Source: Vibrio rhizosphaerae (lineage in GTDB: Bacteria; Pseudomonadota; Gammaproteobacteria; Enterobacterales; Vibrionaceae). From it: a DNA stretch of 64,000 nt. Positions 1 through 56,903 of this stretch are shown one piece after another. The DNA lies in assembly GCF_024347095.1 (NCBI RefSeq), contig NZ_AP024904.1, positions 186,001 through 250,000 of the forward strand, written 5' to 3'. Both the position numbers and the translations under genes were made by a program. The stretch's first letter is position 1, and every line of letters begins with the position of its first letter. The notes below the pieces were generated by a model. It made no database searches, was not told the DNA's origin, and saw nothing but the letters and a program-made list of their open reading frames with translations.

Positions 1-256
1 AACCTATTCAATGCTATGTAGAGTGTTCAGATGCTTACTTGCGAACAAATGGGGCTTATCCGAGATGTGTATGGCGGGTGGGAACGCTAGTCAATCATTT
101 GTGAGCAAATTAGACAGTGTTGTGCTGTGGTTTGTGACGTAGTGATGTTTTTTACCGACATTTTGTCTGTCTTTTCATGCGATTAGGACAGAAGTTTCAT
201 TGGTTGGCGGTAAATATACAGAAGTATTCCTATAGAGTGGTTCTGTATAATGAGCT
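1..256 (+). promoter_or_regulatory. Conserved upstream module P1 of islet I
   Basis: Noncoding stretch ahead of hamA. By eye it matches, over nearly its whole length, the reverse complement of about 55718-55985 (upstream of the PHP-ATPase gene); its last part also matches 28173-28310. It contains the arms TATACAGAA (215-223) and TTCTGTATA (241-249) separated by 17 nt. The right arm overlaps a perfect -10-like TATAAT at 245-250, about 70 bp before hamA. This suggests a promoter with an overlapping operator, which is inference. The match starts at the very first bases, so the module may extend beyond the window. Confidence 0.6.
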
Positions 257-318
257 GTTATGAGCTACCAAACCTCAACATTCAAGTTAATATTCAACAC
301 ATTTGAAGTAAATTTTTT

Positions 319-1053
319 ATGACAGATAAACCTAGATATGGAAGTCAATATTCTGATACTGATTGGGGATGTGACTACTTTGAGATAGAAACAGACACAC
401 CGATTGGAAAAATCAAGGTATGTCATGTAGTAGTAAACGACATAAAGATAATATCTGAAGCACTAGCTAAAAAAGTACTCGATACTTCTTGGATGACAAA
501 TTTAGATGTAGGTACCAAGAGAGCATATGATAGAACAGTTCAAGAAACTGCTTCTGCACTAGTTGAGATATTTGAATCTACCACCACACCTTCTGATGTA
601 GGGAGTGAGTTTGGTGAAGTAATGGTTTCAATTGGATCTACCAAAGCACTTGAGAAAATATTTAATCATGTAATTTTGCCCATAGCAGAACTCTGGAAGC
701 CCCAGATTAAACAAAATGAAGGCTTTGATTTTCATACAGTATGTCCTGACATGTTTATAAATTTTGGAGAAGCAAAATATTCAGGAAGTGCAAACCCCCA
801 TGGTAATGCAATAAATCAATCAAAAGGTTTTATAGATGATGAAAAACATCTAAGGGATTATGTTCACTTAAGAGAGTTGGCTTCAGACGCAGCCATTGAA
901 AACCTGAACAATGATAGTTTTGGTGTTGTCGCGTCATTCTCAATAAATACATCTGACTCACTTGAAGTTTTAAAGAATGCTATTAATACAGCTCAAGATA
1001 AATTGAGTTTAGATAGTATAAAAGCAGTATATTTGGTTGGGGTAAGCACATGA
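319..1053 (+). CDS. hamA: Hachiman-type HamA nuclease (DUF1837)
   Basis: 244-residue protein of the HamA/AbpA (DUF1837) family, the effector of Hachiman anti-phage defence. In known systems HamA is a PD-(D/E)XK-like DNase restrained by HamB and released when phage DNA processing is sensed. Visible motifs are Glu100 in SEFGEV, Asp144 in CPDMF, and Glu151-Ala-Lys153 in GEAKYS, matching the E-x-K active-site signature of the family. The stop overlaps the hamB start by 4 nt (ATGA), implying translational coupling. The Shine-Dalgarno sequence is weak (GAAG about 10 nt upstream). The gene is AT-rich compared with the core genes, and it is preceded by conserved module P1. No signal peptide or membrane segment is seen, so it is cytoplasmic. 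Family assignment is from motifs and gene pairing, not a search. Confidence 0.85.
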   Translation: MTDKPRYGSQYSDTDWGCDYFEIETDTPIGKIKVCHVVVNDIKIISEALAKKVLDTSWMTNLDVGTKRAYDRTVQETASALVEIFESTTTPSDVGSEFGEVMVSIGSTKALEKIFNHVILPIAELWKPQIKQNEGFDFHTVCPDMFINFGEAKYSGSANPHGNAINQSKGFIDDEKHLRDYVHLRELASDAAIENLNNDSFGVVASFSINTSDSLEVLKNAINTAQDKLSLDSIKAVYLVGVST

Positions 1054-3335
1054 GCATAACCGATATTGTAGAAGATATTGAACCAATCAATGGTATTTCT
1101 GAACTATTAGATATTCTTCATAAAGAAGGCCCTGTAAGCTCTGAAGTATTAGAAAAGATAGCTTATTATAAAAAGTTCCACAGAGATAAGTTTCAGGAAC
1201 ATGAAGAGAAAATCATCACTTCTCTCGGACTCTTTTATAAATTACCTGAACCAAAAAATTTGTACTCATTCCTTTTGTCGGGTATTGGAAAACGACATAA
1301 GGAAGAGTTTGGTGAGTATCTTACCCCTGTTCAGGCAAGTGTAAGAAGAGCAGTTAATGAATATAAAGTGGTTTCTATATCTGCACCAACAAGTGCTGGA
1401 AAGTCATATTCTATCAGAGATTTTATTGCTGAAGATGATGGTGATGCTGTTGTAATTGTTCCTTCTAGAGCTTTGATCGCAGAGTATGTCAACACAATGA
1501 AGCAAAAGTTCAATGGTGACAAAAATGTGATGATATCCTCATTTGTAGATGACATATTCAAATCTAGGAATCTACGAAGAATATTTATTCTTACACCTGA
1601 ACGAGCAAGAGACCTATTTTCCAGCAATCTAAACTTAAATATAAAAGTATTTTTCTTTGATGAAGCTCAGGTTTCTGAAGAAAATGAAAGAGGGGTTATT
1701 TTCGATGTTCTTGTGCGAAGGGTTAAGCAATATTTTGACAAAGCAAAATTAATTTTTGCGCATCCGTTTGTAGAAAATCCTGACGCTCAACTTAAAAAGC
1801 ATAACTTTTCTGAAGCAGATGGCTATTCGAGATCATATAGCTATGGCTCTGTAGGTAAAATCTTTATATATCAGCATAAAAATAAAAAATATTATTACTT
1901 CTCTCCATTTATTGAACGCGGTCACCAGATTAAAAAATGTGTAGAGCATGAAAAAAAGTTCAGTGATTTTGCATTTGATGGAGCTCACTCCGTCCTTGTC
2001 TATGTGTCAAAAGCATCTATATATAACGGTAAATTCATTAAACCATTCAGAAAATATATTGATAATTATGAGAACATAGATTCAGTTGAAGCTGAAGAGA
2101 TAATTAACACAATTGAACACCTGCTGGGCGCTGATAACGATGAGCATAACTCTGAACTGGTCGCACTATTACGCAAAGGTATTGTTATTCATCATGGTTC
2201 AGTACCACTAGAAGTACGTTTTCTTGTCGAAGATTTAATAAGAAAGGGTTATGTAAAAATTTGCTTTGCGACAAGCACGCTTGCACAAGGTGTTAACATG
2301 CCGTTTGATATTGTATGGCTTGATAACATGCGAATTCTTGGTGATAGCGATCAAAGTAGATCGTTATCACTTAAAAACCTAATTGGAAGAGCTGGCCGAT
2401 TATCCAACAAACCTCAATTTGACTTTGGATATGTTTTCACAAAAAGTCCTGAGCTACTCTCCCAAAGAGTTAATGAGAAATTCCTATTAGATGAACAATC
2501 AATCATCGACAACCCAGAAACCATAGAAGATCCTGACATTTCGGAATTGATCAATTCAATAAAAGAAGGCAGCTTTGAAGATGATAAGCAAGCACCTTTA
2601 TCCAAAATTGAGCGCCTATCTGAATCAGAAATATTAAAATACTGTAAAGCAATATTAAGTATTATTTATAACGGAGACTCGATTAAGGATAATCTCTACG
2701 GGGCTAAGAATAAAGGAAAAAGAGAATCATTGGAAGAATACTTTAGATTCATATATGAAGCTTCAATTAATAGAGTCTTGTATGATGGTGAAATTGCAGT
2801 ATTTAATCAGGCAATTTCAATTTTCCTCCAGGTAATTCAAGGGCGATCCTTTAGAGAAATTGTCGGTATTCGATATAGTCATATTTCAAAAAAAGATGAG
2901 GGAAGACAAGGTTATGCTGCATTTTCACAGCCGGCTGCCAAATTGCCAAAGAGTACATTGACTCAAAAATATTCAATCTTTGATAAGTACACATTAGCAA
3001 AAAACGTTAGTTATGACGCGGTAGTTTTTGACACATATGATTATCTCGATCAAGTTATTTCATTCTCTCTGACCGAGTCCTTTATAACTTCTTTTAAAGT
3101 ATATAAAGATCAAACATCAGACCAGCGCTCTGATAAAATGATAGAGTTATTACGGTTCGGTACAAATAACACAGTACATACATTGCTAATGCGTTATGGA
3201 TTTCCACCTGAAGATATTGCAGAAATATCAAAATACATACTTTTCATTAACGAAGACACCATAAAATTCAAGCCTGACATATCAGATGCGCCAGAATATA
3301 TTCAAAAAATGGTAGATTGGTATTTGCCGGGCTAG
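1050..3335 (+). CDS. hamB: Hachiman-type HamB superfamily-2 helicase
   Basis: 761-residue DEAD/DEAH-like helicase, partner of HamA. Walker A is APTSAGKS (112-119). The Walker B variant is FFDEAQ (202-207), DEAQ rather than DEAH. Motif III/IV-like blocks follow, and motif VI is GRAGR at 446-450. The pairing of a DUF1837 protein with a helicase having a GRAGR motif is diagnostic of Hachiman/AbpAB. In characterised systems the helicase loads on DNA and gates the nuclease. The gene begins inside the hamA stop (ATGA) and ends 3 nt before an integron attC-like hairpin at 3338-3392. The C-terminal 250 residues show no motif I recognise and may hold the sensing region. The protein appears complete. 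Confidence 0.85.
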   Translation: MSITDIVEDIEPINGISELLDILHKEGPVSSEVLEKIAYYKKFHRDKFQEHEEKIITSLGLFYKLPEPKNLYSFLLSGIGKRHKEEFGEYLTPVQASVRRAVNEYKVVSISAPTSAGKSYSIRDFIAEDDGDAVVIVPSRALIAEYVNTMKQKFNGDKNVMISSFVDDIFKSRNLRRIFILTPERARDLFSSNLNLNIKVFFFDEAQVSEENERGVIFDVLVRRVKQYFDKAKLIFAHPFVENPDAQLKKHNFSEADGYSRSYSYGSVGKIFIYQHKNKKYYYFSPFIERGHQIKKCVEHEKKFSDFAFDGAHSVLVYVSKASIYNGKFIKPFRKYIDNYENIDSVEAEEIINTIEHLLGADNDEHNSELVALLRKGIVIHHGSVPLEVRFLVEDLIRKGYVKICFATSTLAQGVNMPFDIVWLDNMRILGDSDQSRSLSLKNLIGRAGRLSNKPQFDFGYVFTKSPELLSQRVNEKFLLDEQSIIDNPETIEDPDISELINSIKEGSFEDDKQAPLSKIERLSESEILKYCKAILSIIYNGDSIKDNLYGAKNKGKRESLEEYFRFIYEASINRVLYDGEIAVFNQAISIFLQVIQGRSFREIVGIRYSHISKKDEGRQGYAAFSQPAAKLPKSTLTQKYSIFDKYTLAKNVSYDAVVFDTYDYLDQVISFSLTESFITSFKVYKDQTSDQRSDKMIELLRFGTNNTVHTLLMRYGFPPEDIAEISKYILFINEDTIKFKPDISDAPEYIQKMVDWYLPG

Positions 3336-3337
3336 GC

Positions 3338-3392
3338 TCATAACAAGTAAATTCAGGTGACGCCTACGGCGCACCTGATTTAGGCGTTGGTC
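3338..3392 (+). repeat. Integron attC-like recombination site
   Basis: A 55-bp imperfect palindrome starts 3 nt after the hamB stop. The outer AAC (3342-3344) pairs with GTT (3386-3388). Next comes an unpaired block (aagt against the complement of agg/cg), then AAAT-CAGGTG pairs with CACCTG-ATTT with one extra T on the left arm, around a short loop. An outer R box, unpaired spacer, extrahelical base and inner L box are the defining attC features. Its position directly after a stop codon is also typical of a gene cassette. The right core reads GTTGGTC rather than strict GTTRRRY, so it may be decayed. No integrase gene is in the window. Confidence 0.55.
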
Positions 3393-3411
3393 AAAACTTT
3401 GGGAGAACAAC

Positions 3412-3471
3412 ATGGGTACTACGACCATTGGTGTTGACCTAGTCACTAAGACCATCCAAGTATGCGTTTAT
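3412..3471 (+). mobile_element. IS110-family transposase N-terminal remnant
   Basis: Translation from ATG 3412 gives MGTTTIGVDLVTKTIQVCVY, which resembles the DEDD transposase N-terminus of IS110/IS1111 elements (usual pattern M-x-TTTIGVDLAK-x-x-FQV). The frame loses similarity within about 20 codons and stops at 3496-3498, so only a stub remains. It lies about 20 nt after the attC-like site; the IS1111-attC group of this family is known to target attC sites. A GGGAG ribosome-binding sequence sits just upstream. Identification is from the short motif only. Confidence 0.6.
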
Positions 3472-3608
3472 TCGAACTTATATATAGCTTTGAATTGAAT
3501 CGCATTTTCCTCAGTAAAACGCATAAATCAGGATGTGATAGTATTCTTTGTCTGCGCCTTCTTTTATGCTAGCGCTATTCATCCACAACGAGCTTCAATG
3601 CAGCGATT

Positions 3609-4490
3609 ATGAAAACCTCCCTCGACCATCTGCCGGAATATAAACAGCATGAGCTGGCCACGATTTCAACCATTCTGCGTGACACGCTAGAAGATTACCT
3701 GCAAGGCAAAACCGGCAGTAAGCGTGAGTTTCGTATTCTGAAAATCATTTTGTTCGGCAGCCATGCCAAAGGTAGTTGGGTTAAGGATCCGGTCAACGGT
3801 TATATCAGTGATTACGATATTCTGGTGATTGTAAACAAGGCCGCTTTGGTAGAGGACGATGTGGTCTGGCAGCGTGCTGAGGAGCAAATTGATCGCAAAG
3901 TGGAATCCGCGCCGTTGGGTTTGATTGTCCACGATTTGCAGGAAGTGAATGAACGCTTGCAACAGGGGCATTATTTCTTTAAGGATATCCGCGAAGAGGG
4001 GATCGAACTGTTTGCTGCGACGCCGAAACCTTTGGTTATGCCGGGCGATTTGAGTGAATCTGAGCTGCGGGAAATTGCTCGCAAACACTATGAGCAGTGG
4101 TCTTATTCAGCATTCCGCTTTTTTCGTAATTATGAATTCTCTATTTCCGAGGATGATTTGATTCACGCAGCCTTTATGTTACACCAAGTCACGGAACGTT
4201 ATTTAGCCTGTACTCTACTCGTGTGTACTAATTACCTACCCAAATCCCACAATATTGAAAAACTGGGCAAACTCTGTTCGCAAATCGACCCTGAGTTTGC
4301 AACGATTTTTCCGATGGATAATAAATTCCACCGTCGTAGTTTTCGGCGATTGCAACGCGCTTATATTGATGCCCGTTATTCGGAGCACTACGAAATTACT
4401 GCAGAAGAATTGAATTATCTGGAGACAGAAGTCCGACGTTTGCAGGCGCTGGCGGAGCGGGTTTGTTTAGCGCGGATTGATTCTGCCTAA
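3609..4490 (+). CDS. Nucleotidyltransferase-HEPN fusion protein, copy 1
   Basis: 293-residue fusion of an MNT-type nucleotidyltransferase and a HEPN domain. The N-terminal half carries Gly50-Ser51 and the acidic pair Asp68/Asp70 (GS...SDYD), the metal and nucleotide-binding signature of the polymerase-beta fold. The C-terminal half (about 158-285) has the HEPN pattern of MNT-linked families, with ERYLA near 197-200, KSHNIEKL near 212-219 and a terminal RYSEHY. Split MNT/HEPN pairs form toxin-antitoxin systems in which the MNT AMPylates the HEPN RNase; whether a fused form does this is unknown. I see no canonical Rx4-6H RNase motif. Two near-identical paralogues lie at 25576-26457 and 51308-52189, differing most around residues 164-190. 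The ~120 bp upstream is nearly the same as that of copy 2. Confidence 0.8.
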   Translation: MKTSLDHLPEYKQHELATISTILRDTLEDYLQGKTGSKREFRILKIILFGSHAKGSWVKDPVNGYISDYDILVIVNKAALVEDDVVWQRAEEQIDRKVESAPLGLIVHDLQEVNERLQQGHYFFKDIREEGIELFAATPKPLVMPGDLSESELREIARKHYEQWSYSAFRFFRNYEFSISEDDLIHAAFMLHQVTERYLACTLLVCTNYLPKSHNIEKLGKLCSQIDPEFATIFPMDNKFHRRSFRRLQRAYIDARYSEHYEITAEELNYLETEVRRLQALAERVCLARIDSA

Positions 4491-4506
4491 TTATTCTCCC
4501 TTGAAG

Positions 4507-4979
4507 GGTTTTCTTTGATTAGTGATTGATTTGAGTGGTGTGAAACATTCTTAAAAAGTTAATTTGGTCACTGAACTCAGGGTGAAAAATCATGGACGAT
4601 TTTTCAGGATTGCTTGAGCAGGATGCGAATCAATCCGACCCTGATGACGCGCGCTGAACTTAAACCTAGGCCTTTTGGGGTACTTTTTCGGCCTTGAAAA
4701 AGTACCTGGGGCGCAGTCGGTGATGATAATGAGATCGGAGAAAGTCATTGCGTCCCAAACTCAGCATCACCCTTTTATTTTTCCAGCCATCGGCGTTGCA
4801 GTTTGACGCACAATCAGCGTCAGTGATTTCAGAGGCATTGGTGTTCTGTGCGCCAGTTCATCTTTCAGAGATGAAAGACGAACCAGAAAATCTTTTTTTG
4901 TTTGGCTTGGTCGCACGTTGTCCAGAACCAGCTTTTACGGGCGTCCTGCCCGGAAAAGCCTAACCATTCTTCCATGAAT
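4507..4979 (+). repeat. Hairpin-rich 473-bp repeat, unit 1
   Basis: First of two complete tandem direct repeats with an exact 473-bp period, starting at GGTTTTCTTT. Each unit contains several perfect or near-perfect palindromes: TGAAAAATC/GATTTTTCA, GTACTTTTTC/GAAAAAGTAC, a TTTCATCTCTGAAAGATG-type stem, GGGC/GCCC, and AACCATTC/GAATGGTT. A 71-codon open frame starting at TTG (4748) shifts content between copies and I judge it not to be a gene. The unit begins 17 nt after the stop of fusion copy 1. I do not recognise the family. Confidence 0.75.
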
Positions 4980-5452
4980 GGTTTTCTTTGTTTGGTGGTT
5001 GATTTGCGTGGTGTGAAACATTCTTAAAAAGTTAATTTGGTCACTGAACTCAGGGTGAAAAATCATGGACGATTTTTCAGGATTGCTTGAGCAGGATGCG
5101 AATCAATCCGACCCTGATGACGCGCGCTGAACTTAAACCTAGGCCTTTTGGGGTACTTTTTCGGCCTTGAAAAAGTACCTGGGGCGCTTTCGGAGATGGC
5201 AATGAGATCGAAGAAAGTCATTGCGTCCCAAACTCAGCAGCATCCTTTTACTTTTCCAGCCTTCGGCGTTGCAGTTTGACGCACAATTGCGTTCCTCAAT
5301 TTCAGAGGCATTGGTGCTCTGTGCGCCAGTTCATCTTTCAGAGATGAAAGACGAACCAGAAAATCTTTTTTTGTTTGGCTTGGTCGCACGCTTTCCAGAA
5401 CCGGCTTTTACGGGCGTCCTGCCCGGAAAAGCCTAACCATTCTTCCATGAAT
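4980..5452 (+). repeat. Hairpin-rich 473-bp repeat, unit 2
   Basis: Second tandem unit, nearly identical to 4507-4979 across most of its length. Differences concentrate in a short middle block around 5230-5300 (just after GCGTCCCAAACTCAGC). It carries the same stems and the same order. The 71-codon frame at 5221-5436 is the equivalent of the one in unit 1 and is not called as a gene. Confidence 0.75.
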
Positions 5453-5890
5453 GGTTTTCTTTGTTTGGTGGTTGATTTGCGTGGTGTGAAACATTCTTAA
5501 AAAGTTAATTTGGTCACTGAACTCAGGGTGAAAAATCATGGACGATTTTTCAGGATTGCTTGAGCAGGATGCGAATCAATCCGACCCTGATAACAGGCAC
5601 TGAACTCAACCCCTAGGCCTTTTGGGGTACTTTTTCGGCCTTGAAAAAGTACCTGGGGCGCTTTCGGAGATGGCAATGAGATCGGAGAAAGTCATTGCGT
5701 CCCAAACCAGCAGCCTATCATGATTACCTTTCCAGCCTTGGGCTCCCTGATTTGACGCACAATTGCGTTCCTCAATTTCAGAGGCATTGGTGCTCAGTGC
5801 GCCAGTTCATCTTTCAGAGATGAAATCGAAGAAAGTCATTGCGTCCCAAACTCAGCAGCATCCTTTTACTTTTCCAGCCTCCGGCGTGTG
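5453..5890 (+). repeat. Hairpin-rich repeat, unit 3, rearranged 3' end
   Basis: Third unit, intact up to about 5824. It then jumps back: 5825-5887 repeats the stretch that in unit 2 lies near 5210-5271 (GAAAGTCATTGCGTCCCAAA and following). The outward half with the GGGC/GCCC stem is missing. This looks like unequal recombination or slippage between repeat copies, and it marks the right border of islet I. Confidence 0.6.
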
Positions 5891-23897: not shown

Positions 23898-24851
23898 TTA
23901 ATGGAGTGTGCACGTTTTCACGATGAAATTTGTTTTTCCAGCCTCAACGGCTTTGACCAACACATGATTTAACGCAGGATCCAAAATAATGCCGCCTTTA
24001 GCCGCCTGACTTTCTTTGCAAGGTGTTTTCGCATCAAAATCAAACTTACTTGCCACGAGGACTGCGGTCTCAGTCGCACGGCTGCCAAAAGCCATACTTA
24101 AAATTAAGATGACATAACAAGCCATGATTTTGTTCACTGAATAGAAATTGTGCCCATTATCTTTCCTGAGACAAACCCGAAAAATCCGGGAGCTGCCTTT
24201 TTGAGCCTTGGATTTATAAATGGCGATTTTGGAAGATTGCGACTGATTGCCGATGGAATAATAAATGGTGAGCACGACAATCAGTACAAAAGAAATTAAA
24301 GCCAGCCAAGGTGTAAGAATAAGCAGCATCGCGATGGGTTTCGTGAAACTAAAATACTGAGCACTCACACCAAAAATCTGATTGAGCCAAATACTGGCGT
24401 AACCATCAAGAATATAGAGCGCTAAGGCCACAATGAATGCTGACAAGAGCGCCAACTCAAACTCTTTCTGCTTAAGCGTTCTGAAAAACCATTTATAAAT
24501 TGGAACACTGACACAGTAGATACATAGAAAACCCGAAATCATAAAAAATAGTACCAGAATTTTATGCCCCCTAAATGCCATCCCCGATAGCGACAACATT
24601 GCAAAAGCGACCCCTAAAATGCCGGCTAAATCATTGAGGTAATATGACGTCCCTTTGGCGTAAAGCCCAAAAGCGATTAACCACCACACCGCAAATAACA
24701 GCGCTGTTGCCCCAAATTGCCACTTTTCTATATCGGATAATAATTCTAGATGATTTCTAATTAGGTCGATTTCAAAATAGCCATTTATAAATAATAGTGT
24801 TGGAGAAAAAAGATAGCCTAATGACAAGAGAATTATGAAAAAATTACGCAC
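23898..24851 (-). CDS. Hypothetical multi-pass membrane protein
   Basis: 317-residue protein of unrecognised family. About six to seven hydrophobic helices are spread over residues 1-210 and one near 245-262. The N-terminal helix may act as a signal anchor. After the last helix comes a soluble tail of about 50 residues with two cysteines (TPCKES and VKTCTLH) that could form a disulfide if periplasmic. It is more AT-rich than the yedI-like gene and borders islet II; just beyond its start are an unassigned fragment and the first repeat. It may belong to the accessory region rather than the core. Confidence 0.6.
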   Translation of the reverse strand: MRNFFIILLSLGYLFSPTLLFINGYFEIDLIRNHLELLSDIEKWQFGATALLFAVWWLIAFGLYAKGTSYYLNDLAGILGVAFAMLSLSGMAFRGHKILVLFFMISGFLCIYCVSVPIYKWFFRTLKQKEFELALLSAFIVALALYILDGYASIWLNQIFGVSAQYFSFTKPIAMLLILTPWLALISFVLIVVLTIYYSIGNQSQSSKIAIYKSKAQKGSSRIFRVCLRKDNGHNFYSVNKIMACYVILILSMAFGSRATETAVLVASKFDFDAKTPCKESQAAKGGIILDPALNHVLVKAVEAGKTNFIVKTCTLH

Positions 24852-25575: not shown

Positions 25576-26457
25576 TTAGGCGGAATCAATCCGCGCTAAA
25601 CAAACCCGTTCCACCAATCCTCGTAGTCGCTGCACTTCTTTTTCCAGATGTGCCAATTCTTCCCCGGTAATTTCATAATGCTCCGAATAACGGGCTTCGA
25701 TATAGGCGCGTTGCAGGCGGCGGAAGCAGCGGCGGTGGAATTTATTATCGAGCGGAAAAATCGTTGCGAACTCAGGCTCGATTTGAGCGCACAGTTTCCC
25801 CAGTTTCTCAATATTATGAGATTTAGGTAAATAATTGGTACAGGTGAGTAGGGTACAGGCAAATAAATGTTCTGTCGTTTGATGAAGTTCGAATGCTGCT
25901 TTTTTTAGTCGTAAGTCTTTGCGCGCATAGTGATACATGGCCAAATCATCATTGGCACTTTCAAACCACTGTTGATAATGCTTACGTGCTATTTCTCGTT
26001 TTTCTTGCTCGGTTAAATCACCCGGCTCCGCCAACGGTTTCGGTGTCGCGGCAAACAGTTCAATGCCCTCTTCGCGGATATCCTTAAAGAAATAGTGACC
26101 CTGTTGCAAGCGCTCGTTCACTTCCTTTAAATCGTGAACAATCAAACCTAACGGTGCCGATTTCACTTTGCGATCAATTTGCTCTTCGGCACGCTGCCAG
26201 ACTACATAATCCTCCATCAACGCTGCTTTATTGACGATCACCAGAATATCGTAATCACTGATATAACCATTGACCGGATCCTTGACCCAACTGTCTTTGG
26301 CATGGCTGCCGAACAGAATAATTTTCAGAATGCGAAACTCACTCTTACTGCCCTGTTTACCTTGCAGGTAATCTTCCAGTGTATCGCGCAGAATCGTTGA
26401 GATGTCCGCCAGCTCACGCTGTTTGTATTCAGGCAGATGGTCGAGAGATGTTTTCAT
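25576..26457 (-). CDS. Nucleotidyltransferase-HEPN fusion protein, copy 2
   Basis: 293 residues, the same length as copies 1 and 3. The nucleotidyltransferase half (GSHAKDSW, ISDYDILV; Gly50-Ser51, Asp68, Asp70) is nearly identical to copy 1. The HEPN half diverges between about residues 165 and 186 (FESANDDLAMYHYARKDLRL) and becomes conserved again at HQTTEHLFACTLL. In copy 2 the usual ERY/ERF is EHL, so the arginine at that position is lost, which may alter RNase or AMP-acceptor function. About 120 bp upstream matches copy 1 almost base for base. Shared downstream sequence includes TTATTCTCCCT. It is the conserved gene of islet II. Confidence 0.8.
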   Translation of the reverse strand: MKTSLDHLPEYKQRELADISTILRDTLEDYLQGKQGSKSEFRILKIILFGSHAKDSWVKDPVNGYISDYDILVIVNKAALMEDYVVWQRAEEQIDRKVKSAPLGLIVHDLKEVNERLQQGHYFFKDIREEGIELFAATPKPLAEPGDLTEQEKREIARKHYQQWFESANDDLAMYHYARKDLRLKKAAFELHQTTEHLFACTLLTCTNYLPKSHNIEKLGKLCAQIEPEFATIFPLDNKFHRRCFRRLQRAYIEARYSEHYEITGEELAHLEKEVQRLRGLVERVCLARIDSA

Positions 26458-26756
26458 AATCGCAGTATTGAAACTCGTTGTGGATGAATAGCGCTAGCAT
26501 AAAAGAAGGTGCAGACAAAGAATACCATCACACCCTGATTTATGCATATTACTGAGAAAAATGCGATTCAATTCAAAGCAGTAGGGTAACCCTCTTTCAA
26601 ACTAGGCGTACATCATGATTTACTGAATGGTATATCAACATCTTGATGACAACAGACATGGTATATATTCACTAAATGCCTTGTCATATGCAGTGTATGC
26701 GATTAACTTTAATAGTTAAACGTTGTGAAATCACTTATCCTAAAAAGAGACAACAC

Positions 26757-27344
26757 ATGACTGATTTACACACCGAAACACCTTTAGCAAAAGCTATTTT
26801 TGAGCTATTCGATGCTCTAGCGCAGTCGATTGAAGACAATCACGGAGATTTAGCTGCAGGTTCAATAAAAGCTTATATTTTTGGTGGGTGTGCTGTTCAT
26901 CTATATACAAATGCACGCGGGAGCAACGATTTAGATACAGAGATTGACGCTGCAAACAAGCTAGATATATCCAGTATCATTTTAGCACTTGATCCAGTCT
27001 ACTTCGATGACCCCGAAGTAGGTGAGTCGACCCTAGATTGGGATGCGAATTTCAACATTGGTCTACCATCGCTTGGTCCCAATTACAAAGAAAATGCCAT
27101 ACCTCTAGTACATGGAGATTGTATACTTCATATCTACTTAGTCAGTGCTGTGGACATTGCAGTTTCTAAGTTATCTAGATTAGCAGAAGATGATTTAAAA
27201 GATATTATTGCACTGTTCAAAGCAAAACGCTTTAGTTTAGAAGACTTTAAACGGGTGGCGCAGGATGCTGTAGACTATAGCGCAACACCTGATAGTTTAC
27301 AAAGTAACGTAGAATTTGCTATAACAGCTATAGAAGAAGCGTGA
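26757..27344 (+). CDS. DUF6036-like nucleotidyltransferase
   Basis: 195-residue soluble protein. IFGGCAVHLYTNARGSNDLD (residues about 41-60) has the GG-x-A-x6-9-R-x-S-x-DLD pattern of minimal nucleotidyltransferases of the DUF6036/AbiEii-like type, often found in toxin-antitoxin or abortive infection loci. The upstream in-frame ATG at 26676 lacks a ribosome-binding site, whereas AAGAGA precedes ATG 26757 at good distance, so I use the latter. A 129-codon partner follows after 12 nt and a terminator closes the pair. It lies in the cargo position of islet II, opposite in direction to the flanking fusion gene. Its substrate is unknown. Confidence 0.65.
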   Translation: MTDLHTETPLAKAIFELFDALAQSIEDNHGDLAAGSIKAYIFGGCAVHLYTNARGSNDLDTEIDAANKLDISSIILALDPVYFDDPEVGESTLDWDANFNIGLPSLGPNYKENAIPLVHGDCILHIYLVSAVDIAVSKLSRLAEDDLKDIIALFKAKRFSLEDFKRVAQDAVDYSATPDSLQSNVEFAITAIEEA

Positions 27345-27356
27345 CCAGTAATCATA

Positions 27357-27746
27357 ATGGGTTTTGTAACAATGAAACGCACACAAGAAGTTTTTGACAG
27401 ATTGGTATCTAGCGAGTTCAGGTTGGCATCTTTTGAAGATGTTAAGACTGTTGCTCTAGCTATGTGGCATGAAAACTTCGTACCTCAAGTAACGCATTTA
27501 TCAGAGACTTCAGCTAAAGCCGCTGGCTATGTTGTTGACAAACTAATGCGCTTTAACTGTGTTTCTCAAGAACTCAAAGCTAAACTACGTGATGTACTAG
27601 CTGTACTTAAAGGGATGTTCAGCTTTACACCTGTAAAAGTAAAAGGTTGCGATAAACTAGCTCAAAGTTGGGGACTAGTAACAGATTTAAAATTACAAAT
27701 ACGTGAACTTCTTGAATATCAAACGCGGCACTATAAGCACGCTTAA
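27357..27746 (+). CDS. Hypothetical protein, partner of DUF6036-like gene
   Basis: 129-residue, mostly helical, charged protein with no motif I recognise. It starts 12 nt after the nucleotidyltransferase stop and is followed 12 nt later by a terminator, so the two form a bicistronic unit. ATG 27357 and ATG 27372 (MKRTQEVFDRL) are both possible; neither has a clear ribosome-binding site, which fits translational coupling. The arrangement of nucleotidyltransferase plus small helical protein resembles a toxin-antitoxin or abortive infection pair, but that is inference from layout only. Confidence 0.55.
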   Translation: MGFVTMKRTQEVFDRLVSSEFRLASFEDVKTVALAMWHENFVPQVTHLSETSAKAAGYVVDKLMRFNCVSQELKAKLRDVLAVLKGMFSFTPVKVKGCDKLAQSWGLVTDLKLQIRELLEYQTRHYKHA

Positions 27747-28147: not shown

Positions 28148-28172
28148 ACTTGTTCTTTAGTTGTAGAGATAA

Positions 28173-28310: not shown

Positions 28311-28735
28311 CTGACGCTGATTGTGCGTCAAATTTGGGAGCCGGAGGCTAGGAAGATAAAACTTGTGATGCAGGTGTTTGGGACGCAATCCCATACCGCG
28401 ATTTCATTAGCATCTCCGACTGAGCCCCAGGTACTTTTTCAAGGCCGAAAAAGTACCCCAAAAGGCCTCGGGGTTGAGTTCAGTGACCAATCTAGCTTTT
28501 GCTATGTTTCACTCAACTCAACCACTCAACCAAGAAAATCATTCACGGAAGAATGATTAAGCTTTTCCGGGCAGGACGCCCGTAAAAGCTGGTTCTGGAA
28601 CGCGTGTGACCAAGCCAAACAAAAAAGATTTTCTGGTTCGTCTTTCATCTCTGAAAGATGAACTGGCACACAGAACACCAATGCCTCTGAAACCGCAAAA
28701 CGGAATTGTGCGTCATATTTCAGGGCCAAAAGTGA
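28311..28735 (-). repeat. Hairpin-rich repeat at left side of islet II
   Basis: Reverse copy of the 473-bp family with an internal deletion: the TGAAAAATC/GATTTTTCA stem and neighbouring bases between about 28480 and 28510 are gone. The GTACTTTTTC/GAAAAAGTAC, GGGC/GCCC and TCTTTCATCTCTGAAAGATG stems remain. It directly abuts module P3 on one side and the end of the caspase operon on the other. Confidence 0.7.
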
Positions 28736-51189: not shown

Positions 51190-51290
51190 ATAGTAACTGG
51201 CGCACAGGCATCAATGCCCCCTGAAATCGAAAAATACAATAGTGCGTCAAGTTTTGGGGGCCTAAGGCTGGGAATGACGAAAGTTAAACA
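51190..51290 (-). repeat. Partial hairpin-family repeat at islet III right border
   Basis: AACTGGCGCACAG...ATCAATGC...CTGAAATCGA and GTGCGTCAAGTTTTGGGGGCC match one end of the 473-bp family in reverse orientation; the GTACTTTTTC and GGGC stems are absent. It lies between the toxin gene and fusion copy 3, in the same relative place as the repeats next to copies 1 and 2. Confidence 0.55.
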
Positions 51291-51307
51291 ACGGTGGTTT
51301 TGTGTCC

Positions 51308-52189
51308 TCAAGCCCCGTTAATCCGCGCTAAACAAACCCGTTCAACCACTGCTTTTAACTGCAACACTTTCCCTTCGAGATAAGCCAGCTCTTCTGCGGT
51401 AATTTCATAATGTTCTGAATAACGGGCTTCGATATAGGCGCGTTGCAGGCGACGGAAGCTGCGACGGTGGAATTTATTGTCGAGCAGGAAAATCGTCTTA
51501 AACTCAGGCTCGATTTGCGCACACAGTTTACTCAGCTTCTCGATATTGTGGGATTTGGGTAAATAGTTGGTGCATGTGAGTAATACACAGGCCAAAAAAC
51601 GTTCCGTCGATTGATGTAATTCAAAAGCAGCGATCGATAACTCTTTTTGATTTAAATAGTGATGATAACCGGAGATAAAAGCATTCGCGCTTTTAAACCA
51701 CTGTGCATAATGTTTACGGGCAATTTCCCGTTTTTCGGCCTCGGTTAAATCCCCCGGCTCCATCAGTGGTTTCGGTGTCGCGGCAAACAGTTCAATCCCT
51801 TCTTCACGGATATCCCGGAAAAAGTAGTGCCCCTGCTGCAATCGTTCGTTCACTTCCTGTAAATCGTGAACAATCAAACCCAACGGCGCAGATTTCACTT
51901 TGCGATCAATTTGCTCTTCCGCCCGCTGCCAGACGACATAATCTTCCACCAAGGCAGCTTTGTTGACGATCACCAGAATATCGTAATCGCTGATGTAACC
52001 ATTGACCGGATCGCTGACCCAATTCCCTTTGGCGTGGCTACCGAACAGGATGATTTTCAGGATACGAAACTCACTTTTACTCCCGGTTTTGCCCTCAAGA
52101 TAGTCTTCCAGCGTATCGCGCAGAATGGTCGAGATCGTGGCAAGCTCTTGCTGTTTAAATTCAGGCAGATGATCGAGGGAGGTTTTCAT
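51308..52189 (-). CDS. Nucleotidyltransferase-HEPN fusion protein, copy 3
   Basis: 293 residues, third paralogue. The nucleotidyltransferase half (GSHAKGNWVSDPVNG, ISDYDILV) and the end (RRLQRAYIEARYSEHYEITA) are almost the same as copies 1 and 2. Residues 165-186 differ again (FKSANAFISGYHHYLNQKEL), and then HQSTERFLACVLLTCTNYLP returns to consensus, with the Arg retained. Upstream conservation with the other copies is limited to about 35 bp (CTTCTTTTATGCTA). It follows the PHP-ATPase gene on the same strand after about 400 bp and is the conserved gene of islet III. Confidence 0.8.
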   Translation of the reverse strand: MKTSLDHLPEFKQQELATISTILRDTLEDYLEGKTGSKSEFRILKIILFGSHAKGNWVSDPVNGYISDYDILVIVNKAALVEDYVVWQRAEEQIDRKVKSAPLGLIVHDLQEVNERLQQGHYFFRDIREEGIELFAATPKPLMEPGDLTEAEKREIARKHYAQWFKSANAFISGYHHYLNQKELSIAAFELHQSTERFLACVLLTCTNYLPKSHNIEKLSKLCAQIEPEFKTIFLLDNKFHRRSFRRLQRAYIEARYSEHYEITAEELAYLEGKVLQLKAVVERVCLARINGA

Positions 52190-52592
52190 AAAACAACATT
52201 TGGTCAGTGATGAATGGCTTTAGCATAAAAGAAGCACTCAGCAAAAAACACTGTTTATCATAGTATTAGCATTGTTGAAGGATAAAATGCGACGCGGTTC
52301 TTTTTTATTTCTACCCTCGATGATTGTCTCAGATTTTGGCTTCGAGGCATCACACAATGATGCTTATGTGCCAGAACACATTGTGTATTCGGGATGTCCC
52401 GTATGTTCATCGCGATGTTAACTCACCACATGAAAGCCTTTATACATAGAATAATGAACAGTCTCGTTCTTCTTGCTTGGGTACTTCACGCCTGGCTCAT
52501 GCGCCAGTTTGGAGCGGCGGAAATCGGTCGCTGTGAAGCAGATTGTTATGTAAGTCGAAATAGGCTCAGCTATAAGATAAACAAATATAACT
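52190..52592. other. Intergenic region between PHP-ATPase gene and fusion copy 3
   Basis: About 400 bp. Open frames at 52394-52621 (+) and 52418-52651 (-) overlap each other and the ATPase 3' end and resemble nothing I know. Only the conserved block next to the fusion start is interpretable. Confidence 0.35.
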
Positions 52593-55500
52593 TCAATAAT
52601 ATTTTCGTTTCCGTGTATTGAAGGCAGGCATAGCGCCTTCAAGCACTTCAACTATTTTTTGGTTTATTGCCCTATTTTCTATACTTCCCGATAACGTTGA
52701 GAAAGTGTAAGAGTTCTCTTTGTTTAAATTGACGTATATAACTTGCTCTGCGTCAGAGACAACGGCAAGGTTGGGATTGTGAGTAACCATAATGATTTGA
52801 CGCTTTTTCTTTGCTGCTCTAATAAATGGAACTAACACAGTCGCCACACTATGATTGTCAAGGTTATCCTCTGGCTGATCGATAATAAGCGGAATATCAT
52901 TCTTATCTAAAAGGAGATAGAACACTAGCAGAAGAGCACCCCTTTCACCAGGGGATAGTTGCTCCAGCTCTTTATCACCTTGTTTCAGTTGATAGTTGTA
53001 ACCGAGAAAGCTCAATGAAAATAAGTAGTTATAAAGGCCTTGCAAGTCTTTAACTTGCTGCGCTATTTCGCGGGGTACGTTATTTTGCCCCGATCTTTTG
53101 TCATATTTAAACGCTTCTATCAATTTATCTAAAAAATTTATAACACTATCTTTGTCATCAAAGTCAATTTCACTGGCTAATGCAACTATCTCTTTCTCAC
53201 CTCCGTCTTTGGAATGGAATGACCCCATCCTGTTCTGAAGAATATATCCTAGAAATTTAGAAACAAAATCCGACGACTTCACTAGCGAAGCATCAACTTC
53301 TATTTTATAGTTTTTTAATGTATCTGAGTTCTTGGCTATAATCTCATTTAGCTTGCTTCTAGCACTCTTGTAGACACCTATAACTTCATACCTTTTATCA
53401 AATATTTCTCTAGCTATAGCTCTACGTTTTTCGTATTCCTGCTCTATCTTTCTCGGTAGTTCTTCGTTCAAATAAACAAGTTCGGCTTCAAAGTAGAGAA
53501 TTGTATTTGGTGCTTCTCTACTGCCAAGCAAAGTTTTTTTGTCTTTTTCCCAGCCCTCTTTAGCTGTTATATATTCTTGATATGCTTGCTGCTCCGAATC
53601 CAGTCTGCCTTTTTCAAGCTTCAACAAATTTTTATTATCTTCAAGAATATCGTTAAGTGACTTATTATCAGGCTCACTTCTTTCGGAATCATTTTTTTCG
53701 ATTTCTCCCAAAAGTAACTTGCTGGATTCAAGTGACTTTTCCTCTAATTTCAAAATATGGTTTAATCGTGATAGATCTATTTCTACTGATATCAGTTTTT
53801 CTATATCAACATCAAAACCAAACAACTTTCCACCAATTTCATCCTTGAATTCTGCGAAATCGTTATTCTTCTGTTTTATAGATGAAATTACATCACTAAT
53901 TTTTTGAATATTATTTATCGAGACTTTTTTATCACTCTCGGACTTTTTGATCGAACCCTCAATTCTTTCAATTTCTGCCCGAATATCAGAGATTCTTTTG
54001 TTAATTGACTCATGCTTCTGTTTTTTAACCGGGTCTTCGTTCGGGTTGGAGATTGGCACAGGTTCTTCTAGAGCTTGAAGCTCTTCTCTCTTCTTCTTAA
54101 GCTTATTTGCGACTTCGGCCTTATAATGGTCTGTTGCCTTTCGTTCCAAATCAATTATTTCTGAATTTATATCTTTAATGTCCGAAATTAATGCATCAAT
54201 ATCCTCAGTCACTGCTACAGTTTTTTTCTCTATCAACTCCTTAAATGACAACGCCCCAAGGTTTTCTGTTTCGGGTATGTGGGAGAAAACAACGCTTTCT
54301 ATCTCTTCTTGAAATTCGGACGCAGAACTAATTTCATTAGTAAGTCTTTCAAAACGACCCTGCGGCAAATATTTAACCTCGAGCACATCGGTATCCGCGG
54401 GCGATTCATCTAGGTTTTTCGTGTTTTCATTACCGCTTTCCCAAGTTACCTTCGCTTCGAATTTTTTCGCTAACCGTCCATTTTTAGCCCTAAATTTATT
54501 AGGTGTTAAGAAAGAAAAATCCTTGTTGTCATGGTAATTGGAGCAAAGAGAAAGGATGTCAGCAATCGCGCTCTTACCACTACCTTTATTGCCAATGACG
54601 GCCACTAGCTCACTGCTAAATGGTATACAAACATCTTTGAACCAAACATTATTATCTGAATAGCCCTCAACTTGGGTAATGGTTAATTTTTTTATATACT
54701 TCGTCTTATTCTTTGAAACTCTTTCAAATAACGGTGGAGCATCGCCAATAAAAACCCTTTCTAAAGGTTCATTTATTGCCTGCTTCAAGCCATCAAAAGT
54801 CGGGTCAGCCTTGAGCCAGGTAAAGCATTTTCCTATACGATCTTTGTCATCCGAGGAAGATAGGTAATGCGCATCACTACAATCAAGAAGCAAATCATTC
54901 ACTCCTTGTTCAGTTAACTGATTTTTTGCCTTGATAAAAGTTTCTATAGATTCTGCAGAAGTAAAAACAATATCTGCCTTATTAATAATGGACTTTTTAG
55001 TAGCTATCGATGCATCAGTCCATTTTAGTTCCGCCCACTCGGTTTTTCCAATTGCAATGAGATACTTTCCTAAAAAACAATCTTTTTTAAGGGCGTCAAA
55101 TATTTTATCTTCTTTTACATTAAGGTTATTAAAGCCTTCCATTAAATCCGATCCATATCTATGAAGCTGATTTTCTGGTACGGATTTTTTAATCTTAGCC
55201 CCTAATTCTTTTAAACTTTCCGGTGTGATCGCTCTAGACCAAGTATTATCTGACTCAAATGTGTAGCTCTGCTCCAGAGTGTTAAGAAATTGGCTCTGTA
55301 TAGTTTCGACAGAAACTTCATCTGAAAAAATTACATGCAAATTTATTCTCTTTAAATCTTGAAATTGTACCCCAGCAAATTTTTCGATTCTAAACTCGAT
55401 TACCGGCAATAATTTTAAGTTACTGAGCCTTCCTTTTAGCTGCTGCTCATTGGTTAGCTTTTTATACCCATCAATAAATAAATAATCGTTTATTCCGATT

Positions 55501-55658
55501 ACTGAAAACTCTTCCGGTAAACTTTCGAGATCTTGTATATAACTTTCCCAGGTCTCTTCGTTATCTTTCCCATATTTCTGGTAAACAGAAAAAGGAGTAT
55601 GGACATGCAAGTCCCACTTCCTCCACACGGCGCCTTTCGGATAATTATTATTTATCAT
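52593..55658 (-). CDS. PHP domain-AAA/SMC-like ATPase (TrlF-type)
   Basis: 1021-residue cytoplasmic protein. It has an N-terminal PHP phosphoesterase domain with metal ligands His18 and His20 in WDLHVHTPFS and a late CSDAH block (about 261-265). An SMC/RecN-like ATPase follows: Walker A GNKGSGKS at 356-363, about 400 residues of coiled coil rich in Lys/Glu, then the signature LSPGERGALLLVFYLLLD, Walker B PLIIDQPEDNLDN and H-loop MVTHNPNLAV. This order fits the TrlF family; related PHP- or nuclease-ATPases occur in phage-defence islands. ATG 55658 follows AAGGA; the longer frame to 55703 has none. It sits behind module P2 in islet III. A defence role is inference. Confidence 0.8.
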   Translation of the reverse strand: MINNNYPKGAVWRKWDLHVHTPFSVYQKYGKDNEETWESYIQDLESLPEEFSVIGINDYLFIDGYKKLTNEQQLKGRLSNLKLLPVIEFRIEKFAGVQFQDLKRINLHVIFSDEVSVETIQSQFLNTLEQSYTFESDNTWSRAITPESLKELGAKIKKSVPENQLHRYGSDLMEGFNNLNVKEDKIFDALKKDCFLGKYLIAIGKTEWAELKWTDASIATKKSIINKADIVFTSAESIETFIKAKNQLTEQGVNDLLLDCSDAHYLSSSDDKDRIGKCFTWLKADPTFDGLKQAINEPLERVFIGDAPPLFERVSKNKTKYIKKLTITQVEGYSDNNVWFKDVCIPFSSELVAVIGNKGSGKSAIADILSLCSNYHDNKDFSFLTPNKFRAKNGRLAKKFEAKVTWESGNENTKNLDESPADTDVLEVKYLPQGRFERLTNEISSASEFQEEIESVVFSHIPETENLGALSFKELIEKKTVAVTEDIDALISDIKDINSEIIDLERKATDHYKAEVANKLKKKREELQALEEPVPISNPNEDPVKKQKHESINKRISDIRAEIERIEGSIKKSESDKKVSINNIQKISDVISSIKQKNNDFAEFKDEIGGKLFGFDVDIEKLISVEIDLSRLNHILKLEEKSLESSKLLLGEIEKNDSERSEPDNKSLNDILEDNKNLLKLEKGRLDSEQQAYQEYITAKEGWEKDKKTLLGSREAPNTILYFEAELVYLNEELPRKIEQEYEKRRAIAREIFDKRYEVIGVYKSARSKLNEIIAKNSDTLKNYKIEVDASLVKSSDFVSKFLGYILQNRMGSFHSKDGGEKEIVALASEIDFDDKDSVINFLDKLIEAFKYDKRSGQNNVPREIAQQVKDLQGLYNYLFSLSFLGYNYQLKQGDKELEQLSPGERGALLLVFYLLLDKNDIPLIIDQPEDNLDNHSVATVLVPFIRAAKKKRQIIMVTHNPNLAVVSDAEQVIYVNLNKENSYTFSTLSGSIENRAINQKIVEVLEGAMPAFNTRKRKYY

Positions 55659-55717
55659 TAGAGTCCTTATCCATTTCCAAAGTTGTATAAAGCGTTTCGG
55701 CACGCATATTTACATAA

Positions 55718-55985
55718 CAGTTTATTGTACAGAACTACTCTATGAGAATATTTCTGTATAACTTACTGACACTTGATGAAATTTCTGTCCTAATGGCATA
55801 AAAACACAAACAAAATACCAGTAAAAAATGTCACTACGTCAGAAATCACAACACTGTCTAACTCACTCACAAATGATTGACTAACGTTCCCACCCACCAT
55901 AAACATCTCAGATAAGCGCCATTGGTTTGCAAATAAGCACTTAAACACAGTAAATAGCATTGGATAGGTTACAGAAAATCGCCAG
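55718..55985 (-). promoter_or_regulatory. Conserved upstream module P2 of islet III
   Basis: Reverse complement matches positions 1-256 nearly throughout, including CAATCATTTGTGAG, AATGCTAT and TTAGACAGTGTTGTG blocks. The arms TGTACAGAA (55726-55734) and TTCTGTATA (55752-55760) are 17 nt apart, as in P1 and P3. The -10-like hexamer on the reverse strand is TACAAT. The gene start is 68 bp away, almost as for hamA. Confidence 0.65.
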
Positions 55986-56079
55986 AAAAAATTGACACAA
56001 ACATGACATTTTTTGATGTAGATAGGCTTTGTACAAAATTGCAGCGTTTTTATTATCAGGAAATTGGCCTTCTAAGAAT

Positions 56080-56790
56080 GTTTCACTAAATTCAAACAAA
56101 CCACTCAACCAAGAAAATCATTCAAGGATGAATGATTAGGCTTTTCCGGGCAGGACGCCCGTAAAAGCTGGTTCTGGAAAGCGCACACCCAAGCCCAACA
56201 AAAAAGATGTTCTGGTTCGTCTTTCATCTTTGAAAGATGAACTGGCGCACTGGGCACCGATGCTTCTGAAATCACTGACGCTGATTGTGCGTCAAATCTG
56301 GGAGCCTGAGGCTGGGAAGATAAAATTGTGACTCTGCGGTTTGGTGCGCAATCCCATTACGCGATTTCATTAGCATCTCCGACTGCGCCCCAGGTACTTT
56401 TTCAAGGCCGAAAAAGTACCCCAAAAGGCCTTTGGGTTGAGTTTAGCGCACATAATCAGGGTCGGATTGATTCGCATCCTGCTCAAGCAATTCTGAAAAA
56501 TCGTCCATGATTTTTCACCCTGAGAGCATCGTTCAATTGAGCTTTGTTGATTCAATGTTTCACTAAATTCAAACAAACCACCCAACCAAGAAAACCATTC
56601 ATGGATGAATGGTTAAGCTTTTCCGGGCAGGACGCCCGTAAAAGCTGGTTCTGGAAAGCGCACTCCCAAGCTCAACAAAAAAGATTTTCTGGTTCGTCTT
56701 TCATCTTTGAAAGATGAACTGGCGCACTGAGTAACGATGTCTCTGAAATCGAAAAACGAATTGTGCGTCAAATTTCGGTGCCGGAGGCGG
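56080..56790 (-). repeat. Two reverse hairpin-rich repeats left of islet III
   Basis: About 56080-56290 is a partial unit (AATGTTTCACT..., AATCATTC/GAATGATT stem, GGGC/GCCC stem, TCTTTCATCTTTGAAAGATG). About 56291-56790 is a fuller unit with GTACTTTTTC/GAAAAAGTAC, TGAAAAATC/GATTTTTCA and AACCATTC/GAATGGTT. Both are in reverse orientation and border xds. Frames of 60-71 codons inside them are not called as genes. Confidence 0.7.
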
Positions 56791-56903
56791 GGGAATAGGA
56801 AAAGTGCTCATGCGCGGTTTGACACGTTCAGACTCAAGCAAACGCCAGTCGCAAAACAATGACAGGGGACGGCAAGCGTCCCCTGATTGAAGAAAGGTGT
56901 TGA

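What the first reader, a model, noticed from the sequence alone, without database searches (positions are those of the whole stretch)
1..56800. Three islets share one cassette plan with exchangeable cargo
Reading each islet in its own direction gives the same order: module P, variable cargo, a 293-codon nucleotidyltransferase-HEPN gene, then hairpin-rich repeats. Islet I runs 1-5890 (+), islet II 28735-25020 (-), islet III 56790-51190 (-). Islets II and III also have a repeat before P; the equivalent for islet I would lie left of the window. Cargo is hamAB, a DUF6036-like pair plus truncated membrane gene, and a PHP-ATPase. Conserved flanks with unrelated defence-type cargo suggest a cassette system that gains genes by recombination between direct repeats. 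The fusion gene would be the conserved addiction or control part.
Basis: partly seen in the sequence, partly recalled or inferred. Interest (0 to 1): 0.88.

Follow-up and report, generated by a model that had tools for sequence, protein, structure and literature searches.

The report
Scattered integron islets lacking an integrase
In a group of marine vibrios, small genome islets carry a docking site into which swappable anti-phage and other genes appear to have been captured as integron cassettes, although no gene for the capturing enzyme was found in this genome, so the islets look like an old gene-collecting machine that was broken up, copied and still has its contents exchanged.

Summary
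In detail: three islets share module P, exchangeable cargo, a 293-codon nucleotidyltransferase-HEPN gene (NH) and ~475-nt repeats (R); the predicted repeat left of position 1 exists. Against Vibrio ruber and Vibrio sp. MEBiC08052 all three sites hold different cargo, and elsewhere an R-only site here is occupied in both. The interpretation changes: P ends at an attI-like crossover, and behind 15 of 21 P places the cargo ends in a mirrored core plus attC-like site (controls 5 of 151), so many cargoes are integron gene cassettes (Hachiman-like, DUF3800, FRG; Gabija-like in V. ruber). Two relatives keep integrase remnants between P core and NH. This genome has seven P cores and no integrase above the family cut-off. 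A second layer, probably homologous recombination in R and NH, swaps blocks without attC (bacteriocins, toxin-antitoxin pairs; CRISPR arrays also adjoin R). NH is not shown to be an addiction module: it is absent from one exchanged cassette, lacks Rx4-6H, and has a ~24-residue hypervariable patch not shared between copies of one genome but sometimes shared between genera. Integrase action, promoter activity and NH function are inferred.

The parts
1..262 (+). Islet I module P, attI-like site; core 215-251, crossover GTTA at 257-260 (an R copy lies left of the window at -411 to -93)
   Evidence: R end plus P 91% identical in V. ruber
257..3392 (+). Hachiman-like gene cassette: starts GTTATGAGC, ORF 319-1053, HamB-like helicase 1050-3335, inverse core GCTCATAAC 3336-3344, attC-like site to about 3392
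   Evidence: PADLOC HamB; 9-nt inverse core and attC-like site with arm energy -24.5
3393..3482 (+). Relic abutting the attC; short frame that looks like the start of an IS110/IS1111-type transposase
   Evidence: reading of the sequence only, also in V. ruber L035; family name recalled, not searched
3609..4490 (+). Islet I NH gene (nucleotidyltransferase-HEPN); hypervariable patch about residues 165-188
4521..5887 (+). R tandem repeats (units of about 473 nt)
23898..24851 (-). Remnant of an earlier islet II cargo gene
   Evidence: 92% to the 337-aa gene behind P at the V. ruber site L137; 775 nt of this stretch missing in MEBiC L136
25004..25558 (-). Islet II R block beyond NH
25576..26457 (-). 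Islet II NH gene
26676..27746 (+). Islet II cargo: DUF6036 nucleotidyltransferase gene and 129-aa partner; no attC-like site found
28169..28301 (-). Islet II module P (core 28179-28215)
28304..28721 (-). Islet II R block before P
51195..51250 (-). R remnant beyond islet III NH, next to a ParE/Phd pair at 50659-51181 (+)
51308..52189 (-). Islet III NH gene
52545..55718 (-). PHP-ATPase (Ppl-like) gene cassette: gene 52593-55703, inverse core TTACATAAC at 52553-52545; the attC lacks its 3' crossover
   Evidence: not detected by the attC scanner
55713..55970 (-). Islet III module P (core 55724-55760)
56099..56804 (-). Islet III R block before P
   Evidence: partial Rfam TwoAYGGAY match on the other strand at 56587-56659

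Best explanation
Each islet is a dispersed, integron-derived platform without its integrase. P is a copy of the attI region of an ancestral Vibrio chromosomal integron; its conserved ...TGTTA end is the crossover. Gene cassettes (defence operons with their own attC) were joined there by integron-type site-specific recombination. The integrase gene was lost; truncated remnants survive between P and NH in two relatives. NH-R-P platforms were copied to many places on both chromosomes. Block exchange today most likely runs by homologous recombination in the long shared arms (R, P, NH), which swaps whole cassettes and can leave R-only sites; a foreign integrase acting in trans is possible. NH is a passenger or partner of the platform: a fused nucleotidyltransferase whose HEPN half most likely recognises a target, with a specificity patch kept different between the copies of one genome while gene conversion homogenises the rest. 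Shown in sequence: P ends, inverse cores, attC-like sites, integrase remnants, cargo differences at the same site, the R-only site, the patch pattern. Inferred: capture at P itself, present activity, homologous recombination as the engine, NH function.
For: Inverse core of at least 8 nt within 6 kb behind 13 of 21 P places against 9 of 151 control GTTA (Fisher 6e-9); attC-like site at the inverse core in 15 of 21 against 5 of 151 (5e-13). Of the 7 P cores in this genome 5 have an inverse core at the cargo end (islets I and III, C1:1.499, 1.922 and 2.182 Mb), 2 do not (islet II, Gabija-like locus at C1:1.502 Mb). No attC-like site in 41.1 kb of core window. Integrase N-terminal remnants of 37-39 residues lie between a P core and an NH gene or fragment at 4 places in G143 and G188. 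From integrase ATG to the P-core GTTA is 202 nt in G143, and 199 nt in G189 to a TTATGC behind a similar inverted repeat that is not itself a P match; in the 11 of 12 intact Vibrio loci that I could read the GTTA taken as crossover lies at 214-225. Integrase over the cut-off in 35 of 61 Vibrio genomes, in 0 of 7 of this genome and six relatives with NH. Same-site replacement at islets I, II and III; R-only against occupied site. R within 250 nt upstream of 22 of 25 P hits of 110 nt or more, one place counted twice. Patch data.
Against: Islet II and the Gabija-like locus of this genome have P but no attC found behind it; the islet III attC lacks its last crossover. P shares position and layout with Vibrio attI, but no alignment statistic to canonical attI was made, and no activity is known. 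The simple promoter scan found no sigma-70-like site in P of islet I. Many R blocks bound cargo without attC-like sites: none was found in the G188 arrays L129-L133 or the G101 arrays L141-L142, so integron capture explains only part of the cargo. The home-made attC scanner gives probable false hits inside a pyocin gene (L024, L037, L038) and misses islet III and L137. No integrase remnant was seen in the stretches of this genome that I held. In MEBiC islet III has NH but no P, and no R on the cargo side, and metabolic-type genes instead.
Confidence: 0.8

Rival explanations
1. One reading: cassettes move only by homologous recombination between direct R repeats, without any integron part.
For: R-to-R replacement at islet II in MEBiC; R-only site of about four tandem units where relatives have R-NH-R-cargo; R-bounded cargo without attC-like sites; no recombinase among the cargo proteins that were scanned (not every ORF was scanned).
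Against: Does not explain inverse cores and attC-like sites at cargo ends, nor integrase remnants beside P.
Confidence: 0.12
2. NH is a one-gene addiction module that stabilises each islet; the patch keeps the copies from protecting one another.
For: HEPN and nucleotidyltransferase domains as in known toxin-antitoxin pairs; among the copies aligned, 0 of 153 (this genome), 0 of 253 (V. ruber) and 0 of 78 (MEBiC) pairs share a patch at 80% or more, as expected if redundant copies lose their hold.
Against: No Rx4-6H motif: invariant R256 and H260 have three residues between them. HEPN domains fused to nucleotidyltransferases typically lack the catalytic residues and were proposed to bind substrate (PMC3710099, passages). 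NH is absent from an exchanged cassette and has been lost at L118; 7 of 18 copies have no R within 200 nt.
Confidence: 0.2
3. Ordinary co-inherited defence islands; the likeness of the islets is only duplication.
For: Some sites align for long stretches with the relatives, for example the NH loci at C1:1.00-1.04 Mb (L031, L032).
Against: Cargo differs at the same site for islets I, II and III.
Confidence: 0.03

Closest known systems
Sedentary chromosomal integron of Vibrio with anti-phage cassettes
   Same: Gene cassettes with attC joined at an attI-like site beside an integrase (remnant in relatives); defence cargo, as described in PMC12409362 (passages read)
   Different: No integrase over the cut-off here; P cores at seven places on two chromosomes; usually one or a few attC-like sites per place; one 3.1-kb two-gene cassette; embedded in R repeats and NH genes
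CALIN (cluster of attC sites lacking an integrase)
   Same: attC cassettes without integrase, proposed to be degraded integrons (PMC9024848, passages)
   Different: attI-like sites are kept and multiplied; often one attC-like site per place, below that program's default of two; repeats and NH genes add a second exchange route
HEPN-MNT toxin-antitoxin systems
   Same: Same two domains; nucleotidyltransferase residues G50, S51, D68, D70 invariant in 52 sequences
   Different: One fused chain; no Rx4-6H; hypervariable patch; many paralogues per genome. Closest solved structure by sequence is the HEPN domain 4nqf
Polymorphic bacteriocin and contact-inhibition loci with exchangeable toxin tips
   Same: S-type pyocin family with a conserved N-terminal part and different nuclease tips, with immunity-type genes; EndoU tip behind haemagglutinin repeats
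   Different: Here they share the R/NH platform with defence cassettes, and CRISPR arrays adjoin R

Membership tests
Integron | Integron integrase gene (TIGR02249 over the cut-off) beside attI | tested here: not met
   None over the cut-off in this genome; weak matches at 74 bits or less, taken as XerC/D-like. Remnants of 37-39 residues beside P in two relatives. Hence integron-derived, not a complete integron.
Integron | Gene cassettes whose attC inverse core mirrors the cassette start | tested here: met
   15 of 21 P places against 5 of 151 controls; 5 of 7 P cores in this genome
Integron | attI site at the start of the array | tested here: inconclusive
   P-core GTTA 202 nt from a remnant integrase ATG, near the 214-225 of intact loci; activity not testable here
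Integron | Cassette promoter next to attI | tested here: inconclusive
   No consensus promoter-like site in P of islet I; transcription unknown
CALIN | At least two attC sites close together and no integrase (default of IntegronFinder 2) | tested here: inconclusive
   One attC-like site at islet I, two at C1:2.18 Mb (L023); my scanner is not IntegronFinder
HEPN-MNT toxin-antitoxin | HEPN RNase motif Rx4-6H | tested here: not met
   Invariant R256 and H260 have three residues between them in 52 sequences; motif as given in PMC3710099 (passages)
HEPN-MNT toxin-antitoxin | Separate toxin and antitoxin genes | tested here: not met
   One fused chain in the 18 copies of this genome and the 52 aligned sequences
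Hachiman | HamB helicase and HamA nuclease pair | tested here: inconclusive
   HamB profile E 1.7e-61; the 244-aa partner has no Pfam or PADLOC hit at 0.01
Gabija | GajA (OLD-TOPRIM ATPase) and GajB (UvrD-type helicase) pair | tested here: inconclusive
   Pfam AAA_15, OLD-like TOPRIM and UvrD matches in adjacent genes of L112 and of V. ruber L040; PADLOC not run on them

The most novel reading that the evidence does not exclude
A Vibrio lineage has replaced its single integron by a distributed one. It lost the integrase, multiplied attI and spread it over both chromosomes on a platform of ~475-nt structured repeats plus a nucleotidyltransferase-HEPN gene whose hypervariable patch works as an allotype, no two alike in a genome. 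The NH protein polices or marks the platforms, and cassettes are exchanged by homologous recombination or by integrases acting in trans.
Probability: 0.25. Interest if true: 0.87.

Novelty: new variant of a known kind. Interest (0 to 1): 0.72.

Why it matters
It would show how an integron can outlive its integrase: the docking site is copied many times and cassettes go on being exchanged by other means. That makes two questions directly testable: how integrase-less arrays arise, and whether attI sites can spread. The platform gathers anti-phage systems, bacteriocins, toxin-antitoxin pairs and CRISPR arrays, so listing what lies between its arms is a route to new defence genes. The NH family is a natural set of paralogues in which one short patch varies on a conserved backbone, useful for finding what a fused nucleotidyltransferase-HEPN protein recognises.

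Tried and rejected
NH as addiction protein: no partner gene seen, no Rx4-6H, absent from an exchanged cassette; kept as a rival only. Patch coupled to cargo: rejected, since islet III has the same patch in three species with three cargoes, and the patch-sharing copies in Terasakiispira and Saccharospirillum that I compared have no neighbouring protein in common with the Vibrio copies at E 1e-3 (12 comparisons). Hailong HalB as structural relative: E 1.6e-4 but TM about 0.3 and rmsd about 13, not accepted. R on plasmids: no match. P as a plain regulated promoter: not excluded; the inverse cores argue for attI. R as a structured RNA: folding z -4.2 and partial TwoAYGGAY matches are noted, with no evidence of transcription. 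Papers: the listings of searches showed nothing describing this platform (two returned no paper); 23, 74, 76 and 82 were also run; only the held open library was searched.

Limits: the inverse-core test used a fixed expression. It missed the P of islets II and III, the first P of L022 and that of L046, and it scored L026 as a miss because of one changed base; II, III, L022 and L026 were then looked at one by one, L046 was not resolved. Of 22 rows two are the same place, hence 21. The loci were fetched because they carry P. Control positions needed 3 kb of following sequence, test positions 0.7 kb. V. ruber is a draft in about 100 contigs. P counts by blast (8) and by pattern (7) differ. Cargo families were scanned for chosen ORFs only. 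The patch is short, so its synonymous rates are noisy.

Full report
What was checked. NH is a 293-codon gene at 3609-4490, 25576-26457 and 51308-52189; R repeats and P modules flank it and the cargo as described. The R copy predicted left of position 1 exists at window -411 to -93. The window is C2:186001-250000 of a 4.56-Mb genome in two contigs. In that genome NH has 18 full copies and two fragments, R 94 matches and P 8. The full order P-cargo-NH-R occurs at four of the 18 NH copies; elsewhere the modules stand apart: 11 of 18 NH copies have R within 200 nt and 6 of 18 have P within 4 kb.

Who has it. NH was found in none of the 79 other genomes of a first relatives search. R was found in 7 of 196 Vibrio genomes, this one included, one of them (G189) only weakly; NH is in all six others of these, with 19 to 44 match rows each, fragments included. 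Named relatives are Vibrio ruber DSM 16370 and Vibrio sp. MEBiC08052. More distant NH genes lie in Terasakiispira, Saccharospirillum, Marinomonas and alphaproteobacteria, the latter also on plasmids. On three plasmids looked at, no defence operon is annotated beside NH; one has a HigB/HigA pair 2 kb away, and those gene tables are incomplete.

Cargo at the same site. Islet I in V. ruber: left flank 97% identical, the end of R and P 91%, then other cargo (a DUF3800 gene and a 125-aa ORF instead of the Hachiman-like pair), then 91% identity from window 3391 through NH and R. In MEBiC the matching flanks of islet I lie about 30 kb apart. Islet III in V. ruber: 92% up to the end of P and 98% from about 43 nt upstream of NH, with three ORFs, one an SMC-like ATPase, instead of the PHP-ATPase; in MEBiC the NH side is 96% identical, but there is no P and no R on the cargo side, and the cargo includes an aldo-keto reductase and a transporter. 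Islet II in MEBiC: both flanks kept, R on both sides, but a pyocin DNase with a small gene instead of NH, DUF6036 pair and P; in V. ruber R and P are followed by three ORFs in a row, the last being the longer form of the window's truncated membrane gene, and the right flank was not found. In three other relatives (G101, G143, G188) the left flank gene of islet II is kept but no R, P or NH was seen there. At C2:0.64 Mb this genome has only tandem R between two flanks that in MEBiC, and as far as two contigs show in V. ruber, enclose R, NH and a two-gene cargo.

What P is. The P core TTATACAGAA...TTCTGTATAATAAACTGTTA ends at the same place in the copies that could be aligned over it, and cargo-specific DNA starts right there. 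Behind P of islet I the cargo starts GTTATGAGC and ends, just after the HamB-like gene, with GCTCATAACAAG and a hairpin site ending in GCGTTG. That is the mirrored layout of an integron gene cassette (layout recalled). An inverse core at the cargo end was also found at islet III and at C1:1.499, 1.922 and 2.182 Mb, but not at islet II or the Gabija-like locus: 5 of 7 P cores of this genome. Over 21 P places in fetched loci, 13 have an inverse core of 8 nt or more within 6 kb and 15 have an attC-like site at an inverse core; 151 control GTTA positions in core DNA give 9 and 5. A separate scanner found no attC-like site in 41.1 kb of core window, but it also gives probable false hits inside a pyocin gene and misses two sites seen by eye.

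Where the integrase went. No match in this genome or in the six relatives passes the integron-integrase cut-off, while 35 of 61 sampled Vibrio genomes have one that does. In G143 and G188 four N-terminal remnants of 37-39 residues lie between a P core and an NH gene or fragment; none was seen in the stretches of this genome that I held. From integrase start to the P-core GTTA is 202 nt in G143; in G189 a TTATGC behind a similar inverted repeat lies at 199 nt; in 11 of 12 intact loci the GTTA that I take for the crossover lies at 214-225 nt. So P is best read as the attI region. R lies within 250 nt upstream of P in 22 of 25 hits, and the order NH-R-P in one direction recurs.

Other cargo on the platform. 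Between or beside R blocks lie an S-type pyocin family with a constant N-terminal part and different nuclease tips with immunity-type genes, ParE/Phd, HipA and GNAT genes, an EndoU tip behind haemagglutinin repeats, and CRISPR arrays with a 28-nt repeat close behind R. G188 has a 75-kb array of ORFs, R blocks, full NH genes and NH fragments without detected attC-like sites. Since only part of the cargo has attC-like sites, a second exchange route must exist; homologous recombination in the shared arms is the simplest and is inferred.

The NH gene. The 18 copies are on average 79% identical outside and 28% inside a 24-residue patch. Entropy peaks at residues 169-186 (54 sequences), which the model (mean pLDDT 92) places at the end of the first and the start of the second HEPN helix. 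In the ten closest paralogue pairs the synonymous difference is 0.11-0.29 in codons 1-160 but 0.72-1.29 in the patch, so the patches are old while the flanks have been homogenised, most likely by gene conversion. Among aligned copies no pair within a genome shares a patch at 80% or more (0 of 153, 0 of 253, 0 of 78), while 13 of 18 have such a match in V. ruber and 7 of 18 in MEBiC. Some patches are shared with Terasakiispira at 85-96% nucleotide identity against 73-80% for the backbone. The patch does not follow cargo. The nucleotidyltransferase residues are invariant in 52 sequences; the Rx4-6H motif is not formed. A target-recognising nucleotidyltransferase is the likeliest reading, an addiction protein the next.

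Judgement. Known: defence cassettes in Vibrio chromosomal integrons (passages of PMC12409362) and integrase-less attC clusters (passages of PMC9024848). Not seen in the listings of searches: a lineage with many attI-like sites and no integrase, or the NH platform.

Noticed in passing
L113:6017-6460 and 7760-8509, L114:2578-3514 (own genome C2:0.37-0.38 Mb), L169:6625-7020 (MEBiC): CRISPR arrays with repeat GTTCACTGCCGCATAGGCAGCTTAGAAA lie close behind R blocks (L113), near one (L114), and in MEBiC between R and NH. L114 is called from its match to the MEBiC array; cas genes were not looked for.
   Followed up: partly
window:56587-56659 and the same place in other R copies: The strand opposite to NH in R matches part of Rfam TwoAYGGAY at gathering score. 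In 137 distinct copies the first loop reads ANGGA in 120 of 135 readable ones, and one stem pair is C-G in 111, T-A in 17, C-A in 6, T-G in 1. PMC4333381 (passages) suggests CsrA binding for that family.
   Followed up: partly
L129-L132 (G188 C2:806001-885900): A 75-kb array with full NH genes and 3' NH fragments that start at recurring positions (residues 118, 214, 223-225).
   Followed up: partly
L025:1-8800 (own C1:1.25 Mb): Haemagglutinin-repeat gene and an EndoU toxin tip with a small gene, interleaved with two NH genes on the other strand; in V. ruber and MEBiC a 3100-codon ORF lies beside NH.
   Followed up: no
L025:10400-11809: PET-hydrolase-like domain with ricin-type lectin repeats between two R blocks (Pfam).
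   Followed up: no
window:28793-31310: Right flank of islet II: a gene that by eye reads like a caspase-type peptidase and a 510-aa partner; matched in MEBiC, not in V. ruber.
   Followed up: no
L118:3477-3701: Upstream region and first codons of a lost NH gene at a site where V. ruber L051 has the whole gene.
   Followed up: partly
L023:1-104: Qrr small RNA gene near the C1:2.18 Mb islet (Rfam).
   Followed up: no
L071:10001-17900 (Saccharospirillum): Two NH genes with different patches, and an 831-codon ORF distantly similar to the window's HamB-like helicase (26%, E 2e-22).
   Followed up: no
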